This document shows positions 1 to 6,059 of a stretch of DNA of 6,151 bases, piece after piece. The notes under the pieces are model-generated. The model did not search any database. It had not been told where the DNA came from and saw only the letters and a program-made list of their open reading frames with translations. Every line of letters starts with the position of its first letter. The first letter of the stretch is position 1. Both the position numbers and the translations under genes were made by a program. The stretch comes from J061 sp003695725 [NCBI: Candidatus Schekmanbacteria bacterium] (GTDB lineage Bacteria; Schekmanbacteria; GWA2-38-11): the NCBI GenBank assembly GCA_003695725.1, contig RFHX01000071.1:1-6151 (forward strand), written 5' to 3'.

Positions 1-94
1 ACAGCATAATACTTATCTATCGTAGTCCCGTCTCCAAGCTGTCCATCACCATTTGCGCCCCACGCCCAAACTGTTCCATCTGATTTTAATGCAA
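1..94 (-). repeat. RCC1 DNA repeat, copy A
   Basis: This stretch matches 379-472 at 93 of 94 bases; the single difference is base 19 (a here, g at 397). It encodes blade 4 of the RCC1 protein, and the mismatch changes Thr to Ile at residue 229. The repeat probably continues past the left edge. Confidence 0.9.
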
Positions 95-704
95 CTGTAT
101 GTAAATAACCTGCTGAAATCGCTAAAACATCGCTTAACGCATTGCCTTGCGCATCAATTACTTGTACTGGATTTAATCTGTCTGTCGTGGTCCCGTCTCC
201 AAGCTGTCCATCACCATTTGCGCCCCACGCCCAAACTGTTCCATCTTCCTTCAATGCAACATTAAAACTACCACCTATATAACCACCTCTTTGACCTCTA
301 GACATCGCTCCTATACCTTCACCTTTAGAAATCGCTGATACTCCAGTAAAAGGATTTCCTGATTCATCCAATACCTGAACAGCATAATACTTATCTGTCG
401 TAGTCCCGTCTCCAAGCTGTCCATCACCATTTGCGCCCCACGCCCAAACTGTTCCATCTGATTTTAATGCAAGTCCATCGATTCCACCTGCAATATCAGA
501 AACATCTTTAAGAGCCTCGCCTGATTCTTCAAATATCTGGACAGGATTAAATCTATTATCTCCCCAAACCCACACAGTCCCGTCATCCTTTAAAAGACAC
601 CCCCCATAACGCGTAAGAGATATTTTAGGAGTAACTGCAAAGGCATTAGAACCAATTAATAATAGTATTAACAGATTAAAAAAAATATATTTTTTCTTCA
701 TCAT
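1..704 (-). CDS. Secreted RCC1-repeat (beta-propeller) protein, N-terminal part
   Basis: The first 234 codons are present and the gene runs off the left edge. I read it directly from the sequence. Residues 1-23 form a signal peptide: a KKK start, a hydrophobic stretch [11 protein letters not shown], and a cleavage site SNAFA before VTPK, so the protein is exported. Four RCC1-type motifs follow, each built on [12 protein letters not shown], with the DGTVW tryptophans at W45, W87, W158 and W213. Copies 2, 3 and 4 continue into [13 protein letters not shown]; copy 1 is degenerate and lacks that tail. RCC1 repeats fold as blades of a seven-bladed propeller, usually a binding surface; the ligand here is unknown. 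Blade spacing is 42, 71 and 55 residues, and the 71-residue spacing reflects a glycine-rich insert near residues 128-146. A second ATG follows at once (MM), so the start is uncertain by one codon. No good Shine-Dalgarno is visible. Function cannot be given beyond an exported repeat protein. Confidence 0.9.
181..246 (-). repeat. RCC1 DNA repeat, copy B (core only)
   Basis: This 66-base core matches 394-459 with one mismatch (base 189, g against a), which is synonymous. Outside the core it diverges from copies A and C. It encodes the [17 protein letters not shown] part of blade 3. Confidence 0.88.
379..472 (-). repeat. RCC1 DNA repeat, copy C
   Basis: This copy matches copy A over 94 bases with one mismatch and encodes blade 2. 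Identity reaches third codon positions, so it reflects recent duplication or gene conversion rather than protein-level selection alone. Offsets are 213 bases (71 codons) from copy B and 378 bases (126 codons) from copy A, so the frame is kept. Confidence 0.9.
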
Positions 705-757: not shown

Positions 758-1384
758 TCACTTTTCAATTTCCGGATAATTTCTGACTTCGATTATTATT
801 TTTTTCTTAATATTTTTCCAATCAACAGATTTTAGCATAACGGGCATCGGCTCTTCCTCTGCATCATCAAAAAAAACCAAACTCTTCAAGATATGCATTT
901 TGTTATATTTTGTTTTGCTATATTTCTTTTCAAAAAAACTCAAAAGTTCTTCAAGTGAATATTTTTCAAGAAGAAAGAAAAGATCAATAAAATCTTTTTT
1001 GCATCCGCGAGAGGAAATAGCAGATATCTTCATAGCCGCAATATCGCGAATATCAGCAAGTTTAATATTTTCAAAGTCAATGAGGGGATAAAGCAGGTCA
1101 TAATCATAATGAAAAAAACTAACTTTAACTTCATCTAAAACTATATCCAATGTCCTATTATCTTCATAGACAACTATATATTCTCCTAGATTAGACAATT
1201 CTTTTCTAATGTCAGGGACTGAAAAAGAACCTTTTGAAAAAAAATCCAGATCTATGGATTGTCTGTGCCCGATTTGAATGGCAAGAGAAGTCCCGCCTGC
1301 CAAATAAAAATCTGAAACAAATCTTAGCGATCTTATTTTCGCCAAAAGGGATTTTGTTTTTTCATTGATTGCTTTTGTGTACAT
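758..1384 (-). CDS. AbiEii/AbiGii-type nucleotidyltransferase (toxin-like)
   Basis: This 208-residue protein carries the hallmarks of the AbiEii/AbiGii family (DUF1814), whose characterised members are nucleotidyltransferase toxins in abortive-infection toxin-antitoxin systems. Visible motifs are GGTSLA at 30-35, HRQSIDLDFF at 40-49 (the D45-x-D47 metal-binding pair), KVSFFHYDYDLL at 87-98, K119 in AAMK, R126 in SSRG, and KKDFID at 129-134. These cover the nucleotidyltransferase core. At 208 residues it is shorter than many AbiEii proteins (roughly 300) but normal for the compact subgroup. The opening MYTKAINEKTK is typical, which supports the ATG at 1384. No Shine-Dalgarno is apparent. The first 52 bases overlap the end of the upstream gene in another frame, so translation may be coupled. 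Sampled composition is AT-rich (13 of 60 G+C at 901-960). The nucleotide and target are unknown. Members of this family outside defence loci are common, so a toxin role is inferred. Confidence 0.9.
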   Translation of the reverse strand: MYTKAINEKTKSLLAKIRSLRFVSDFYLAGGTSLAIQIGHRQSIDLDFFSKGSFSVPDIRKELSNLGEYIVVYEDNRTLDIVLDEVKVSFFHYDYDLLYPLIDFENIKLADIRDIAAMKISAISSRGCKKDFIDLFFLLEKYSLEELLSFFEKKYSKTKYNKMHILKSLVFFDDAEEEPMPVMLKSVDWKNIKKKIIIEVRNYPEIEK

Positions 1385-1626
1385 AACGGTTTTTGAATAT
1401 CAAAATACAAACAAAAGAAATTAATTGATTTGGGATCAAGTTTGTCTATTTTTTTTTGAAAAACCTTTTTGACTTCATTAATCCCGTATGTCCTCATCAT
1501 CCACTGGAAGTCATCGATATCTCCGCGAGACAAAATTCGTTCGATAATAAAATTCCGGTTTCTCTTCAGGTCAACTTTATCAGCATCAACATCCCAAAAA
1601 AGATAAGGCTTTTTAAGAGGGTCCAT
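1333..1626 (-). CDS. Small DUF6922-like protein, likely partner/antitoxin of the AbiEii-type gene
   Basis: This 97-residue protein opens with MDPLKKPYLFWDVD (FWDVD at 10-14), then has IIERILSRGDIDDFQWMMRTYG near 27-48 and a SINFFCLYFDI stretch near 67-77. I recognise this as the small family usually called DUF6922, often found just upstream of AbiEii-type nucleotidyltransferases. The match is from memory and not from a search. It overlaps the downstream gene by 52 bases, so the tail after about residue 80 (lysine- and glutamine-rich) is encoded by DNA that also encodes the toxin N-terminus. That tail is probably less constrained. Unlike classical AbiEi antitoxins (about 200 residues with a winged helix), it is short and shows no obvious helix-turn-helix. 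An antitoxin role rests on position and co-occurrence only. No Shine-Dalgarno precedes the ATG. Confidence 0.8.
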   Translation of the reverse strand: MDPLKKPYLFWDVDADKVDLKRNRNFIIERILSRGDIDDFQWMMRTYGINEVKKVFQKKIDKLDPKSINFFCLYFDIQKPLCTQKQSMKKQNPFWRK

Positions 1627-1705: not shown

Positions 1706-1743
1706 AAAAAAATTCCTTCTCCCTGCTAAAGAGAGAAGGAATT
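1706..1743 (-). terminator. Rho-independent terminator of the AOR operon
   Basis: A perfect 11-bp inverted repeat, AATTCCTTCTC (1711-1721) against GAGAAGGAATT (1733-1743), encloses an 11-base loop. On the minus strand the stem runs straight into a run of seven T residues (the last two stem bases plus 1710-1706). On the plus strand no T tract follows, so it acts on minus-strand transcripts. It sits 27 bases past the AOR stop codon and ends the four-gene unit. Confidence 0.88.
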
Positions 1744-1770: not shown

Positions 1771-3561
1771 CTATTCAATGCCAAGCTCGGCAAGTTTTTC
1801 TTTTGTTGGCACACCGTTTTCGTCCCAGCCGCGCGCTGTATAATAATCGTTCAGCATCTTTTCAAAATCCACGGTCAACCCAGCAGAAGGTCCTGAAGGA
1901 AGAGGTTCACTAATGACACGAGGAGGCAGGGAATCATCTTTTCTTGTAAATCCAGCTTGCACATTAAACAGTCGTTCTACATTCCAAATTCTCTCTCCAG
2001 CCTTCACATAATCTTCATATGAAAAATTTTCACCTGTTGCTGCGCTCAAAATCTTTGCAAATGGTTCATGCTGAACGACAACTGTTGCAAACATACAGGC
2101 CCCGGTGGCGTCAATTGCAGCATTCAAGTTTTGAAAATCCCTTGCAAGCTCACCCTTCCCTTCTTCTGTCTTTGATTTAACCTTCTTGGGAATTCCAAAA
2201 ACTTCGGCAAAAACCGTAGCTCCTCTTGTATGGTCACCGCCGCGCGGATTTGTTGAATAGGTAAGCGCCATTCCTTTTGAACCTCGTGGGTCATAGGCGG
2301 AAATTTCCATTTTCTTGGATGTCATTGAAATTTCAGGCACCCCATATTTTTCTGCAAGGCGGTAGCTTCCAAGAGCAAGCTCATCGCCGAATCCTTCACG
2401 AAGTCCTGTTTTCCTTGTAAGTTCAACCATCGCTTTTGCATCACCAAATTTGAGCTCCATCCCCACATCGTTCTTTGTAAGTTTACCCTTCTCATAAAGC
2501 TCCATTGCTGTTGCAATCGTTACGCCGACAGAGATACTGTCCATACCAAGTTCATTGCAGATGAAATTGGCTTTTGCAATAGCATTGATATTGTCGATAT
2601 TGCATGCCGACCCAAAAGCATAAATAGTTTCATACTCGGGACCTTCACCATAGCCCTCAAAACCTTCTTCTGTTACTCTACTTACTCTCCCACAGCCAAG
2701 AACACAACCATGACAGCTCTTTTTTCTAACCAAAATCTTATCTCTTATGGCTTGCCCATTTATGTTATTTGCTCCTTCAAATACGCCTTCGCGATAATTA
2801 TTGGTAGGAAAGATGCCTACTGCATTACAGTAATCAACTGCCATAGATGTGCCGAAATAGCCATAACCTTTGGCTACATCACCCTTAAAAAGCGCTGCCA
2901 TTTCAAGGCTTGCTTCTCTGAACCCCTCTGCAGCTGAAAACCCCTTTGTACCATGAACAGCTATTGCTTTGAGATTTTTGGAACCCATCACAGCGCCTAC
3001 ACCTGACCTTGCCGCAGAACGGTTTGTATCATTTATGATTGCAGACATTAGTACGAGTTTTTCTCCTGCCGGCCCAATGCAGGCAACTTTAGCCCTTGGA
3101 TCTGTCTTTTCCCTGACCAGCCGTGTTGTTTTATGCGTATCCTGACCCCATATTTCGCCTGCATCTCTCAATTCAACTTTGTCGTTTTGAATCCAAATAT
3201 ATGTTGGCTTTTCAGCTTTTCCTTCAATTATTATGCCGTCATATCCTGCTGCTTTAAGCTCAGGGCCCCAATAACCTCCTGAATTCGAACATGCAATAGT
3301 ACCTGTCTGAGGAGACTTCGTCACTACCATAAACCGCGCCGCACAAGGAGCACCTGTTCCTGTAAGTGGTCCGGTAAATATAAACATCTTATTTTCCGGT
3401 GAAAACGGATCAACCTTGGGATCAACTTCATCAAGCAGCATCTTTGAGCCGATTCCTCGCCCTCCTATATATTTCTTTGCCAACTCCTTATCCAAATCTT
3501 CAACTTTATGTGCACCTTCTGTAAGATTTATTCTTAATATCTTTCCTGTCCATCCTTTCAT
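1771..3561 (-). CDS. aor: Aldehyde ferredoxin oxidoreductase, catalytic subunit
   Basis: This 596-residue protein belongs to the tungsten/molybdenum AOR family, which oxidises aldehydes to acids, or reduces acids in reverse, with ferredoxin as electron partner. It is cytoplasmic; no signal peptide is seen. The N-terminal domain (about 1-205) opens with GKILRINL and includes ARFMVVTKSPQTG and SNSGGYWGPELKAAGYDG. R76, N93 and A183 fall at the same numbers I recall for cofactor-contacting residues in Pyrococcus furiosus AOR. The C-terminal domains hold C283-x2-C-x3-C290 and C489 for one [4Fe-4S] cluster, GPEYET (307-312), LGMDSIS with D341, YDPRG (423-427), RGGDHTRG with H444, and D484 in DATG. 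Length is normal and nothing is missing. An ATG at 3648 would add 29 arginine-rich residues unlike the family. The ATG at 3561 is better: it has a full AAGGAGGT ribosome-binding site and a 4-base ATGA overlap with the ferredoxin stop. The substrate cannot be read from the sequence; many family members remain uncharacterised. Confidence 0.95.
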   Translation of the reverse strand: MKGWTGKILRINLTEGAHKVEDLDKELAKKYIGGRGIGSKMLLDEVDPKVDPFSPENKMFIFTGPLTGTGAPCAARFMVVTKSPQTGTIACSNSGGYWGPELKAAGYDGIIIEGKAEKPTYIWIQNDKVELRDAGEIWGQDTHKTTRLVREKTDPRAKVACIGPAGEKLVLMSAIINDTNRSAARSGVGAVMGSKNLKAIAVHGTKGFSAAEGFREASLEMAALFKGDVAKGYGYFGTSMAVDYCNAVGIFPTNNYREGVFEGANNINGQAIRDKILVRKKSCHGCVLGCGRVSRVTEEGFEGYGEGPEYETIYAFGSACNIDNINAIAKANFICNELGMDSISVGVTIATAMELYEKGKLTKNDVGMELKFGDAKAMVELTRKTGLREGFGDELALGSYRLAEKYGVPEISMTSKKMEISAYDPRGSKGMALTYSTNPRGGDHTRGATVFAEVFGIPKKVKSKTEEGKGELARDFQNLNAAIDATGACMFATVVVQHEPFAKILSAATGENFSYEDYVKAGERIWNVERLFNVQAGFTRKDDSLPPRVISEPLPSGPSAGLTVDFEKMLNDYYTARGWDENGVPTKEKLAELGIE

Positions 3562-4043
3562 AATGCCTTTACCTCCTTCAGTTTCTCTGCTAAAGTTGTA
3601 AAAAGTTTCTCTCTTTCTGCCCTTTCTTCCTCTGTTATTTCTCTCCATTCTATTGCACGGTCTTTACAAAATTTGACACATTCAGGTTCGCCGCCGCAAA
3701 AGTCGCACTTGATCGCATGTCCAAAATCATCGTAAGCAAAGATATGTTTTATTGGGCACTCATCTATACAGGCGCCACATCCTGTGCATTCTTCTTCATT
3801 GATTGTAACAACCCCTGTATCCTCATTCTTTTCAATTGCTCCTACTGGACAGGCAGGCAAACAAGGTGGGTCATCACATTGGAAACAGGTTATCGGATAG
3901 TAAGACTGCTCCTCTTCAAATTCAACAGCTTTGATCTTTGAATAAAAACTTGTAAAAACATTAAAATGCTTATTCGAACATGCTGTTTCGCACCTTTTAC
4001 ACAAAGTGCATCTCTTAGGATTAAAGTGGATAACATTTGGCAT
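3558..4043 (-). CDS. Ferredoxin-type electron-transfer subunit with four [4Fe-4S] sites (AorA-like)
   Basis: This 161-residue protein has exactly sixteen cysteines in four groups: C12, C15, C18, C22; C53, C56, C61, C65; C86, C89, C92, C96; and C113, C116, C122, C126. This is the arrangement of four-cluster subunits such as HycB and DmsB, and of the small AorA subunit of multi-subunit AORs (Aromatoleum type). Clusters in such proteins are usually ligated across groups. There is no signal peptide or membrane segment, so it is cytoplasmic. Residues 137-161 form a charged, probably helical tail (ITEEERAEREKLF onward). Its stop overlaps the AOR start by four bases (ATGA), implying translational coupling and a physical complex, with this subunit carrying electrons to or from AOR. 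GGAGGG (4053-4058) lies nine bases before the ATG. No flavoprotein subunit gene (AorC) is found in the window, so the final electron partner is unknown. Confidence 0.93.
   Translation of the reverse strand: MPNVIHFNPKRCTLCKRCETACSNKHFNVFTSFYSKIKAVEFEEEQSYYPITCFQCDDPPCLPACPVGAIEKNEDTGVVTINEEECTGCGACIDECPIKHIFAYDDFGHAIKCDFCGGEPECVKFCKDRAIEWREITEEERAEREKLFTTLAEKLKEVKAL
3571..3578 (-). promoter_or_regulatory. Strong ribosome binding site fixing the AOR start
   Basis: AAGGAGGT on the minus strand is a full eight-base match to the usual 16S anti-Shine-Dalgarno core. It lies nine bases before the ATG at 3561, inside the end of the ferredoxin gene. It supports 3561 rather than the longer ORF start at 3648. 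Confidence 0.85.
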
Positions 4044-4071
4044 AAAGAAAAACCCTCCGCTTTATAAATTC

Positions 4072-5193
4072 TCATCCCAACATTTCAAGTGCAAATTTTA
4101 TCTCGTCTCTTATATCCTCATCCTCTTCATTATTCAATGCAGAATTTAATAAATCACGAGATTTTCTACCTCTAATTCTACCAAGTGCCCAAGCTGCATA
4201 ACCTCGAGCTTTATTTGGCCCGGCATTCAGAATTTCGCCAAGGGGTTCAACTGCCCGCTCATCTTGAAAATTACCTAATCCAATTGCGGCATTTCTAATC
4301 AAATATTTTTTATCCATTAGAAAGAATCCCATAAGAGTCATTGCAAAGCCTCTTTCCCAATCTTCATCGCTGATTTTCAATACATCAAGCATTTTAGGAT
4401 GCATTAGTTCCATCGAAACCTCAAAATCTTCAAGAGGAGTAAGATTTTTGTTCTTCGGACAGACATCACGGCAAATTGTACAGCCTTCTCCAAGAAGATT
4501 TCCGCAATTTTCGCGAATTTCATAAGGAATAAAATGTTTGTTATGGCCAAGATGAAAGTCGATGCACTTTGTCATATCGCAGACATAAGGAGTGCTCAAT
4601 GCATTGGTGGGACATGCTTTCATACAAAGGTCGCATTTACCACAATCCATATCGAGCGGACTGTCCGGTTCAAGGTCTGCATCTGTAATATATCCTGATA
4701 GCGATATCCAAGCGCCATATTTAGGATGCTGAATTATGGCATTTTTCCCATAGAAACCGACTCCGCATTTGGAAGCCATCAGTTTTAGAGGGAAACCGCC
4801 TGCAGTCAGGGAAAAACACTGATATCCCCTATCCTTTAAAAAATCGATTATCTTTGCATTGCGCTCGCCATTGTTTTGAAGATAATTTGTATTCACATGA
4901 GTGGCTTCTGCACAGCCAAGTAAATCCCTTTTACATTGCTCATAAGTATATACTTTCTCGATATATGCTGGAGATCCCGTGATTATAACAGATTTCGCTT
5001 CAGGCAGAAAATCTTTTGGTTGAAAAACAGTATCTATTCCTCCGGAAAGCGGTGTCGCCTTTGCAAAAATCCTTTGCACAGCGGCAATTCTTTCATAATC
5101 CTCTGAAGGATAATCCTCCGGCGCCACTACTCCAACAAGGGGTATTCCTACCTCGTTTTTTACATAATCTACGAATTCATTTTTTAGGGTCAT
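4072..5193 (-). CDS. QueG-like iron-sulfur protein with C-terminal HEAT repeats (COG1600-type), divergent
   Basis: This 373-residue protein has the layout of epoxyqueuosine reductase (QueG): an N-terminal domain that in QueG binds cobalamin (about 1-175), a double [4Fe-4S] domain, and C-terminal HEAT-like repeats. The eight expected ligands are visible as C184, C187, C190, C194 and C210, C238, C241, C245. YLIRNAAIGLGNF (297-309) and GYAAWALGRIRG (331-342) are HEAT helices. GVGFYGKNAII (144-154) and LSGYITDADLEP (165-176) match the QueG pattern GLGWxGKxxxL and LGEILTDLxLPP. It is divergent, though: the ARYARGRDYH-type N-terminal motif of true QueG is not seen, and the CISYxTIE segment reads CIDFHLGHN (210-218). 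Cysteines C205 and C230 are extra. QueG reduces epoxyqueuosine in tRNA, but here the gene sits in an AOR operon, so a different reductase or electron-transfer role is likely. CTCCC (5201-5205; GGGAG on this strand) lies seven bases before the ATG. Cytoplasmic. Confidence 0.85.
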   Translation of the reverse strand: MTLKNEFVDYVKNEVGIPLVGVVAPEDYPSEDYERIAAVQRIFAKATPLSGGIDTVFQPKDFLPEAKSVIITGSPAYIEKVYTYEQCKRDLLGCAEATHVNTNYLQNNGERNAKIIDFLKDRGYQCFSLTAGGFPLKLMASKCGVGFYGKNAIIQHPKYGAWISLSGYITDADLEPDSPLDMDCGKCDLCMKACPTNALSTPYVCDMTKCIDFHLGHNKHFIPYEIRENCGNLLGEGCTICRDVCPKNKNLTPLEDFEVSMELMHPKMLDVLKISDEDWERGFAMTLMGFFLMDKKYLIRNAAIGLGNFQDERAVEPLGEILNAGPNKARGYAAWALGRIRGRKSRDLLNSALNNEEDEDIRDEIKFALEMLG

Positions 5194-5214
5194 AACCTTT
5201 CTCCCAATTAATTT

Positions 5215-6000
5215 CTAAAACTTCGCTAAAGGAGGCAGTATTGCGCCAAGAAGGGCTTCAGCAGGTATTCCCTTTTTTAATCCAAATATCGTCCCATCAT
5301 CTTCAAGAAGAGTCCACTGCACCCACTCACCATGCTGTTTAAGTTTGCAGTTTATGTCGTCATCTGTATATTTTTGATCTTTTCTCTTCTCAGTTAACTC
5401 TCTTACAAGTTTGATATAAGTCTCTCCCATATCCTTATAAAAGGGGAAATCCTCTGCTTCAAGATGAAATGAATATATCCCGGCATGACTTCCAACTTTT
5501 TCTCCTGAATATTTTGATTTGAAGAAATCAGCCCTAACCTTCTGAAGAGAGTCATAGCTTTTGCCATGCCTTTTGCAGAGCTCTTTCATTGCATCAGCAA
5601 AGTATTTTATGTCTTCTTCAGTGTCAAAATAAGGTTTAATGTCAGTACCGCCTGCCAACACTACCTTGTCAGTTATATTTGCCCGAAGTTCAATATACGC
5701 TTTTGGAATGTGCGGATTTACAGGGAAAAAATGAAGTTCCAATACCATTGCATCAGCAGTGCTTCCCTGTTGTCCCAATTCTTCTGCAAGCACAGGAGGT
5801 GTTTCTATTTTAAGGTCGCAGTAAATAGATGTAGCTTTGTCAAAGGTCTCACCCTCAGAACGGTTCAGATAAAGTGGTCCCATCGGCGTATCAAATTTTT
5901 TTTTGACAATTTCTGAAGACGGATTATAGGTAGAGCAGATTTTTTCATATTCGCCAATCATCTGTTGCAGAAAATCGACTACCTCATCTTTTGTAAGCAT
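5215..6000 (-). CDS. Divergent HemF-like (coproporphyrinogen III oxidase family) protein
   Basis: This 261-residue protein aligns by eye along most of aerobic coproporphyrinogen III oxidase (HemF), which decarboxylates two propionates using oxygen. Shared segments are ETFDKA (51-56, HemF VFEQA), NPHIP (95-99) with R106, AGGTDIKPYF (116-125, HemF GGGFDLTPFY) with D120, EED (128-130), DDGTIFGL (234-241, HemF DRGTLFGL) and AEALLGAILPPL (247-258, HemF TESILMSMPPL). Many signature residues are gone. The two histidines of the HPxNPxxPTxH motif read F92 and Y102, the HR pair reads YS (164-165), FFDD reads YSFH (176-179), and the three arginines around RRGRYVEF and DRG read H223, E225 and D235. The C-terminal 30 or so residues of HemF are absent. 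So it probably keeps the fold but not the classical reaction. It is the first gene of the operon; AGGAGGG (6007-6013) sits six bases before the ATG. Cytoplasmic. Confidence 0.82.
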   Translation of the reverse strand: MLTKDEVVDFLQQMIGEYEKICSTYNPSSEIVKKKFDTPMGPLYLNRSEGETFDKATSIYCDLKIETPPVLAEELGQQGSTADAMVLELHFFPVNPHIPKAYIELRANITDKVVLAGGTDIKPYFDTEEDIKYFADAMKELCKRHGKSYDSLQKVRADFFKSKYSGEKVGSHAGIYSFHLEAEDFPFYKDMGETYIKLVRELTEKRKDQKYTDDDINCKLKQHGEWVQWTLLEDDGTIFGLKKGIPAEALLGAILPPLAKF

Positions 6001-6029
6001 AAATATCCCTCCTATTTGAATTATGAAAA

Positions 6030-6059
6030 ATAATTAGCAATAGTATCATTCTATGTCAA
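6030..6059 (-). promoter_or_regulatory. Candidate promoter of the four-gene AOR operon
   Basis: On the minus strand a perfect TTGACA (6054-6059) is followed by an 18-base spacer and AATTAT (6030-6035; four of six against TATAAT). Transcription would start near 6023, giving a leader of about 23 bases that contains the AGGAGGG ribosome-binding site. The -10 box is weak, so an activator may be needed. An alternative, TTGTTG with TACTAT, overlaps it and scores lower by eye. Confidence 0.55.

What the first reader, a model, noticed from the sequence alone, without database searches (positions are those of the whole stretch)
1771..6059. Self-contained operon joining HemF-like, QueG-like, four-cluster ferredoxin and AOR proteins
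Seen: four tightly packed co-directional genes (gaps 21 and 28 bases, then a 4-base overlap), a candidate promoter before the first and a strong terminator after the last. Known: AOR with an AorA-type ferredoxin is an established pair. I do not know of a described pathway that adds a HemF-fold protein and a QueG-like protein. Inference: the four may form one redox pathway. One guess is that the HemF-fold protein binds a tetrapyrrole or other polycarboxylate, the QueG-like protein (possibly corrinoid-dependent) does reduction, and AOR/ferredoxin supplies low-potential electrons or converts an aldehyde/acid group.
Basis: partly seen in the sequence, partly recalled or inferred. Interest (0 to 1): 0.75.

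Follow-up and report, generated by a model that had tools for sequence, protein, structure and literature searches.

The report
HemF-like/QueG-like/tungsten aldehyde oxidoreductase operon
Four neighbouring genes of an uncultured bacterium form a real, conserved unit that joins a tungsten-type aldehyde enzyme and its electron carrier to two look-alikes of heme- and tRNA-modifying enzymes that lack the usual catalytic residues, in a lineage that has multiplied this tetrapyrrole-enzyme fold.

Summary
The four genes are real and tightly packed: HemF-like, QueG-like, four-cluster ferredoxin, AOR. The same unit lies in a second genus of the family, without the window's flanking genes. QueG-like/ferredoxin/AOR are adjacent in 4 of 4 genomes of the order; the QueG-like type was not found in 382 others at E<=1e-60. 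The HemF orthologue is unlinked in one genome and a broken remnant in another, so the trio is the core and HemF a detachable partner. Neither odd protein passes as its namesake: the HemF-like one lacks canonical HemF's His and DRGT-Arg; the QueG-like one lacks QueG's Asp and intact DYH motif but keeps both [4Fe-4S] Cys sets. The four genomes hold 12, 8, 3 and 3 bilin-reductase-family matches and 4, 6, 3 and 2 HemF-family matches, against at most one of each in 382 others; no PF01126 heme oxygenase was found. As a group the HemF-like proteins, though not the window's clade alone, link to bilin reductases in profile comparison; canonical HemF does not. Best reading (inference): AOR and ferredoxin feed low-potential electrons to a corrinoid-type Fe-S reductase and/or a HemF-fold tetrapyrrole-type reductase. 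Substrate unknown.

The parts
5215..6000 (-). HemF-like protein (261 aa), first gene; PF01218 family, not canonical HemF
4072..5193 (-). QueG-like protein (373 aa): putative corrinoid-binding N-terminal part (inferred from QueG similarity), two [4Fe-4S] Cys sets, HEAT repeats
3558..4043 (-). AorA-like ferredoxin subunit, four [4Fe-4S] Cys sets (16 Cys)
1771..3561 (-). tungsten-type aldehyde:ferredoxin oxidoreductase (596 aa), start overlaps the ferredoxin stop by 4 bases
1711..1743 (-). intrinsic-terminator-like hairpin after the AOR gene
   Evidence: 14 pairs, T run
6030..6059 (-). sigma-70-like promoter candidate before the HemF-like gene (weak)
   Evidence: 10 of 12; matched by 78 of 1000 resamples

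Best explanation
A lineage-specific low-potential redox operon. Shown: a conserved core of AOR, four-cluster ferredoxin and a QueG-like Fe-S protein, to which one family adds a HemF-like protein. Inferred: AOR oxidises an aldehyde and passes electrons through the ferredoxin subunit to the QueG-like protein, a class III (QueG/reductive-dehalogenase type) corrinoid reductase with a substrate other than epoxyqueuosine. The HemF-like protein is not a coproporphyrinogen oxidase; it is one of many HemF/bilin-reductase-fold proteins of this lineage, binds a tetrapyrrole or tetrapyrrole-like substrate and works in ferredoxin-linked, oxygen-independent reduction, in the manner of ferredoxin-dependent bilin reductases.
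For: Same four genes in G001 without the window's flanking genes; trio adjacent in 4 of 4 genomes. AOR and ferredoxin match solved Aor complexes; all 16 ferredoxin Cys kept in 4 of 4. QueG-like: 8 cluster Cys and GxxGKN invariant in 6 of 6; the QueG Asp is absent in 6 of 6 and DYH is intact in none. HemF-like: Asp120 kept in 22 of 22 rows, Asp234 in 3 of 3 of the P0004 clade, but His and DRGT-Arg replaced in 3 of 3 of that clade. Radiation: 26 PF05996 and 15 PF01218 matches in the four genomes against at most one per genome in the 382 others; PF01126 heme oxygenase in 0 of 4. Other redox partnerships: AOR > FDBR > 6PGD-like (L141), NIR_SIR > FDBR > HemF-like (L016). Profile link of HemF-like to FDBR-like: score 36.8, against at most 20.6 in 60 column shuffles and 15.3 for canonical HemF.
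Against: The HemF orthologue is unlinked in G003 and broken in G002 while the trio persists, so it is not essential to the trio. The P0004 clade alone does not reach the FDBR profile above the null (17.2), and P0004 itself matches only PF01218. Arg106 and Asp234 of HemF are kept in the P0004 clade, so a HemF-like chemistry is not excluded by them. Of 26 FDBR-family genes 11, and of 13 HemF-like genes 5, have no same-strand neighbour within 100 bases, and others sit beside glycosyltransferases, a transporter or a methyltransferase, so the radiation need not share one chemistry. No cofactor, substrate or electron transfer was observed. Both structure models failed (mean pLDDT 42.1 and 38.6).
Confidence: 0.38

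Rival explanations
1. The unit is an ordinary Aor complex (AOR plus ferredoxin) for aldehyde oxidation; the QueG-like protein is its dedicated redox or maturation partner and the HemF-like gene is a passenger in one family.
For: QueG/ferredoxin/AOR adjacent in 4 of 4 genomes, HemF linked in only 2 of 4; AOR more conserved (72-82%) than QueG-like (53-60%) across the order; HemF remnant in G002.
Against: HemF-like leads the operon in two genera and is 66-71% identical among the three full copies, so it looks kept under selection; a second AOR gene of the genome is followed by an FDBR-family gene (L141).
Confidence: 0.28
2. The HemF-fold protein is a corrinoid chaperone or modifier that loads or repairs the corrinoid of the QueG-like reductase.
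For: Known enzymes of the HemF/FDBR/RCCR fold act on tetrapyrroles (PMC10151467, section 13); the gene lies directly before the presumed corrinoid enzyme in 2 genomes.
Against: G002 keeps an intact QueG-like gene with only a remnant of this HemF orthologue; corrinoid binding is untested; no such role is known to me for this fold (recall).
Confidence: 0.14
3. HemF-like is a genuine oxygen-dependent coproporphyrinogen oxidase for heme synthesis.
For: PF01218 match 8e-27; Asp120, Arg106 and Asp234 kept; the genome encodes MauG-type and cytochrome-c-type proteins, so it presumably needs heme.
Against: 94-96 bits against 262-446 for 14 other copies in unrelated genomes; below the NCBIfam cut-off; canonical His and DRGT-Arg replaced; 100/100 split from canonical HemF.
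Confidence: 0.04
4. QueG-like is the tRNA epoxyqueuosine reductase of the organism.
For: TIGR00276 is the best family, C-terminal HEAT repeats present; full-length alignment with solved QueG.
Against: 150.5 bits against cut-off 200; QueG Asp absent in 6 of 6 and DYH intact in none; next to ferredoxin and AOR in 4 of 4 genomes.
Confidence: 0.03

Closest known systems
Aldehyde:ferredoxin oxidoreductase complexes with Fe-S subunit (PDB 8c0z, 9mqx, 6x1o/6x6u)
   Same: AOR and four-cluster ferredoxin subunit, near full-length matches, Cys and His aligned with 9mqx
   Different: QueG-like gene adjacent in 4 of 4 genomes of the order; HemF-like gene in front in one family; a third Aor subunit was not looked for
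QueG / reductive dehalogenase class III B12 enzymes
   Same: two [4Fe-4S] Cys sets, HEAT repeats as in QueG, matches 5d08 (3-372) and 5d6s (11-350)
   Different: QueG Asp and intact DYH motif absent
HemF (oxygen-dependent coproporphyrinogen oxidase)
   Same: PF01218 family, Asp120/Arg106/Asp234 kept
   Different: His and DRGT-Arg lost, own side of the tree, several family matches per genome
Ferredoxin-dependent bilin reductases / RCCR (FDBR-like sequences of Ca. Schekmanbacteria are mentioned in PMC10151467)
   Same: same fold as HemF per PMC10151467; many FDBR-family genes in the same genomes; Asp-x-x-Pro motif aligned in the profile comparison
   Different: window protein itself scores as HemF, not FDBR; P0004 clade alone not above null

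Membership tests
AOR (tungsten aldehyde oxidoreductase) | AFOR_N and AFOR_C domains over full length | tested here: met
   9mqx 2e-201 over residues 1-595
AOR (tungsten aldehyde oxidoreductase) | [4Fe-4S] Cys CxxCxxxC plus distal Cys, active-site Glu/His | tested here: met
   C283/C286/C290/C489, GEGPEYE and H444 align with 9mqx and are invariant in 4 of 4; residue roles recalled
AOR (tungsten aldehyde oxidoreductase) | tungsten cofactor and aldehyde oxidation | not testable with these tools
   needs purified protein
QueG | curated family cut-off | tested here: not met
   TIGR00276 150.5 bits against cut-off 200
QueG | conserved active-site Asp and DYH motif (PMC4646009 passages) | tested here: not met
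   Asp 0 of 6, intact DYH 0 of 6, Tyr kept in 2 of 6 (window and G001), read by eye; mapping to the paper's numbers inferred
Class III corrinoid Fe-S reductase | two [4Fe-4S] Cys sets | tested here: met
   C184/187/190/194 and C210/238/241/245 invariant in 6 of 6
Class III corrinoid Fe-S reductase | base-off corrinoid binding | not testable with these tools
   structure model failed, pLDDT 38.6
HemF | PF01218 match | tested here: met
   8.3e-27, 94 bits, cut-off 31.8
HemF | NCBIfam equivalog cut-off | tested here: not met
   102.8 bits against 297
HemF | conserved His of HxNxR-type stretch and Arg of DRGT | tested here: not met
   His 10 of 10 and Arg 9 of 10 in canonical rows, replaced in 3 of 3 of the P0004 clade; among all 11 HemF-like rows 2 keep His and 1 keeps Arg
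Ferredoxin-dependent bilin reductase | PF05996 match | tested here: not met
   PF05996 not among the families matched at E<=1 by the 11 HemF-like members, P0004 included
Ferredoxin-dependent bilin reductase | profile similarity | tested here: inconclusive
   HemF-like group E 1e-4 to 2e-4, P0004 clade alone E 0.1

The most novel reading that the evidence does not exclude
This lineage runs an oxygen-independent branch of the HemF/bilin-reductase/RCCR superfamily: HemF-fold proteins act as ferredoxin-dependent reductases coupled to tungsten AOR and corrinoid Fe-S enzymes. That would mean the superfamily need not have arisen for life with oxygen, contrary to the proposal in PMC10151467.
Probability: 0.18. 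Interest if true: 0.85.

Novelty: new variant of a known kind. Interest (0 to 1): 0.6.

Why it matters
PMC10151467 (section 13) says that the known enzymes related in structure to bilin reductases all ultimately depend on oxygen. A genome with 16 matches to the two families (12 bilin-reductase, 4 HemF, one of the latter a broken fragment), no PF01126 heme oxygenase and physical coupling to AOR (oxygen-sensitive, recalled) offers a direct test of what else this fold can do. It also supplies sequences that link HemF to bilin reductases at profile level, a similarity that the paper calls not statistically significant. The QueG-like/AOR pairing points to an unassigned corrinoid-type reductase.

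Tried and rejected
Rejected: canonical HemF, canonical QueG and an FDBR proper for the window proteins (membership rows). Chance operon rejected: same unit in G001 without the window's flanking genes.

Led nowhere: structure of HemF-like (with one partial relative) and of QueG-like (alone) gave mean pLDDT 42.1 and 38.6, so no fold search was made. A viral-contig scan with the six-row QueG alignment found no relative. Plasmid searches gave 43 records for QueG-like and 38 for HemF-like, all under 60% identity; the named features among the rows shown are queG and hemF. The single genome-contig scan gave one relative, a contig end holding only residues 1-129 of a 60% HemF relative (L005), which cannot show the operon. 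Literature: AOR with epoxyqueuosine reductase, AOR with queuosine, AOR with coproporphyrinogen and operon, and Schekmanbacteria with AOR gave 0 papers each; Schekmanbacteria with bilin gave one. Only open-licence PMC papers were searched, for these words alone.

Limits: the genomes outside the order are a sample of 382. The QueG search used E<=1e-60 and scored at most 5 candidates per genome. The wide PF05996 search scored at most 7 candidates per genome and so shows 7 for G000 and G001; the full counts are. The AOR check looked at 23 loci with about 1.5 kb flanks; 5 further AOR places outside the order got no locus, and in L110 and L113 the matched AOR frame was hidden by an overlapping ORF, so a neighbour could have been hidden there too. 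Ten of 14 canonical-type HemF loci (L173-L186) entered; L177, L179, L180 and L183 were dropped because the ORF picker chose another frame, L192 was not used, and G218's divergent protein was added. Four of the 15 PF01218 matches of the order are not in alignment A2 (11 rows): the L150 protein, the fragment G000:C161 and the two short G002:C11 matches. Neighbours were scanned with Pfam in part only; a few are named by BLAST cluster with a scanned member. G003 is only 70% complete. The Cys positions for QueG printed come from a gapped row and are not used; numbering is used.
Full report
Observation. Pfam gives Coprogen_oxidas for the first, Fer4_16 plus HEAT for the second, several Fer4 models for the third and AFOR_N/AFOR_C for the fourth. 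NCBIfam places the first and second well below the curated HemF and QueG cut-offs (102.8 against 297; 150.5 against 200). A strong terminator follows AOR at 1711-1743. The promoter call is weak.

Conservation. The genome (G000, 2.77 Mb, 374 contigs) has one held relative in its family (G001; one search covered 2 genomes for the family) and two more in its order (G002, G003). G001 has the same four genes in the same order: HemF-like 71%, QueG-like 61%, ferredoxin 76%, AOR 82%. In G003 and G002 the trio QueG-like > ferredoxin > AOR is intact (52-53%, 65-72%, 72-82%), but the HemF orthologue is on another contig (66%, G003) or a fragment with a stop (G002). The trio is therefore in 4 of 4 genomes and the quartet in 2 of 4. 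None of the three other window genes is found in the fetched loci of the other three units. Those three loci share a PMT_2-type gene on the downstream side of AOR, next to it in G002 and G003 and one gene away on the other strand in G001. Beyond the order, the QueG-like profile found nothing at E<=1e-60 in 382 genomes. The nearest AORs elsewhere (44-53%) have a detected ferredoxin neighbour in 7 of 23 fetched loci and no detected QueG-like or HemF-like gene.

What the proteins are. AOR aligns end to end with solved AORs (9mqx 2e-201, 1aor 2e-180, 9g7j 6e-178, 8c0z 1e-167), and the ferredoxin with the Fe-S subunits of 8c0z, 6x1o and 9mqx, with 16 Cys invariant in 4 of 4 orthologues. This pair is a known kind. 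The QueG-like protein aligns over its whole length with QueG (5d08, 4e-44) and weakly with a reductive dehalogenase (8q4h, 7e-8). Its eight cluster Cys and GxxGKN are invariant in 6 of 6 aligned sequences, four trio orthologues and two paralogues. QueG's Asp (VDTG in 5d08) is T, T, T, A in the trio orthologues and absent in the two paralogues. The DYH stretch reads NYL, KYL, DFL, DFL in the trio (by eye). PMC4646009 (abstract and passages seen) calls the D100-Y101-H102 motif strictly conserved and D130 conserved, and says that changing them affects QueG activity; by that test this is not a QueG, while a class III corrinoid reductase remains open. The HemF-like protein keeps Asp120 (22 of 22 rows), Arg106 (8 of 11 HemF-like rows) and Asp234 (10 of 11). 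It has lost the His found in 10 of 10 canonical rows and the DRGT Arg found in 9 of 10; of the 11 HemF-like rows 2 others keep the His and 1 other keeps the Arg. Roles for Asp400, Arg262 and Arg401 of the human enzyme are known to me from a reference title seen in PMC7242693 (passages only); the mapping to 234, 106 and 235 is my inference. The HemF-like sequences form one side of a 100/100 split from canonical HemF, and the P0004, G001 and G003 copies form a 100/100 clade; the tree program warns of long branches for L016 and G218.

A wider radiation. The HemF search led to an unexpected setting. PF05996 (ferredoxin-dependent bilin reductase) matches 12, 8, 3 and 3 places in G000-G003, 24 of 26 over the cut-off; of 14 named control genomes only Synechococcus elongatus matches. 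In the 382 other genomes 4 have a match, one each. PF01218 matches 4, 6, 3 and 2 places in the four genomes, 14 of 15 over the cut-off, some of them fragments; 16 of the 382 others have one each, and 3 of 14 controls. No copy in the order scores like a canonical HemF (166 bits or less, against 383-446 in 13 of the 16 others; the other three have 262, 87 and 20.5). Heme oxygenase PF01126 matches 0 of 4, and 3 of 14 controls; other heme-opening enzymes were not tested. In the tree, 9 of the 10 terminal pairs or triples of FDBR-like genes join different genera, so these paralogues are old and kept. Contexts vary. By same-strand runs with gaps under 100 bases, a redox-type partner is in the run of 8 of 26 FDBR-family genes and 4 of 13 HemF-like genes among the neighbours identified: NIR_SIR > FDBR > HemF-like (L016), NIR_SIR > FDBR (L139), AOR > FDBR > 6PGD-like (L141), FAD enzyme > FDBR (L131, and L150 by cluster), radical SAM with FDBR (L131, L143, and L151 by cluster), the window and G001 units, and HemF-like > MauG (L150); in L018 a MauG gene follows at a wider gap. 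Eleven of 26 and 5 of 13 stand alone, and others lie beside transporters, a methyltransferase, an aminotransferase or glycosyltransferases. PMC10151467 (abstract, start of introduction, section 13 and passages seen) says HemF has the same fold as FDBR and RCCR without significant sequence similarity, and that sequences of Candidatus Schekmanbacteria fall in the outgroup of known FDBRs. That suggests, but does not show, a Schekmanbacteria host; the one named relative (L005) is titled only Proteobacteria bacterium.

A sequence bridge. hhalign of the 11 HemF-like proteins against the 26 FDBR-like proteins gives probability 57% and E 1e-4; a re-alignment gives 48%, 2e-4, score 36.8, against at most 20.6 in 60 column shuffles. 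Canonical HemF (10 sequences) against the same FDBR profile gives 15.3, null level. The canonical profile is less diverse (Neff 2.3 against 3.05), but eight HemF-like sequences of equal diversity (Neff 2.3) still reach 26.0. QueG-like and AOR profiles give E 0.49 and 0.08. The signal survives each single omission (32.1-38.7). It comes mostly from three divergent members (34.7 alone) but also from five others (26.3); the window's own clade alone is at null level (17.2) (E 0.1). Adding seven canonical HemF sequences weakens it (probability 19%, E 0.0012). An Asp-x-x-Pro motif of both families is aligned. HMMER with the HemF-like profile finds only HemF structures at E<=0.1, and the FDBR-like profile finds FDBR and RCCR structures, not HemF, at E<=0.01, so the link is seen only by profile-profile comparison.

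Mechanism. Shown: conserved gene unit, family assignments, lost catalytic residues, kept Fe-S ligands, radiation. Inferred: AOR and ferredoxin supply low-potential electrons; the QueG-like protein uses a corrinoid and an unknown substrate; the HemF-like protein binds a tetrapyrrole-like molecule and is reductive rather than oxidative. That the HemF gene is linked in only 2 of 4 genomes means it is an add-on, not the heart of the unit. Rivals are an ordinary Aor complex with a passenger HemF, and a corrinoid-handling role for HemF.

Verdict. The operon is real, and the word searches that I made found no paper on the combination. It is a new variant built from known kinds. The larger point is the multiplication of the HemF/bilin-reductase families in this lineage.

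Noticed in passing
window 758-1626, minus strand: DUF6922 (1333-1626) followed by an AbiEii-type nucleotidyltransferase (758-1384): looks like a type IV toxin-antitoxin or abortive-infection pair.
   Followed up: no
window 3-704, minus strand: Start of an RCC1-repeat protein with very similar repeats and a hydrophobic N-terminus, cut by the contig end.
   Followed up: no
L141 6404-8968 (G000:C268): A second, distant AOR (33-36%) directly followed by an FDBR-family gene and a 6-phosphogluconate-dehydrogenase-like gene.
   Followed up: partly
L016 526-3001 (G000:C23); L139 6700-9142 (G001): NIR_SIR-type Fe-S protein followed by an FDBR-family gene in two genera; in L016 a divergent HemF-like gene follows, in L139 a protein without Pfam match.
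   Followed up: partly
L028 4971-7865 (G001:C4): A HemF-like gene lies divergently beside another distant AOR (29%); the sister HemF-like gene in G000 (L018) has UbiD and MauG neighbours instead.
   Followed up: partly
L018 1476-3633 (G000:C97); L150 9511-13441 (G001:C7): HemF-like genes beside a di-heme MauG-type peroxidase; the L018 ORF has a long N-terminal extension that looks like a membrane or signal segment.
   Followed up: no
L143 526-10000 (G003); L151 402-10572 (G002): Radical SAM/B12-binding protein, FDBR-family gene and several glycosyltransferase-cluster genes in similar order.
   Followed up: no
L191 1270-2328 (G218): A divergent PF01218 protein (87 bits) in a genome outside the order, very long branch.
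   Followed up: no
G000-G003: 10, 16, 12 and 8 AOR match rows in these genomes (some genes give several rows), which looks like a large AOR complement.
   Followed up: no
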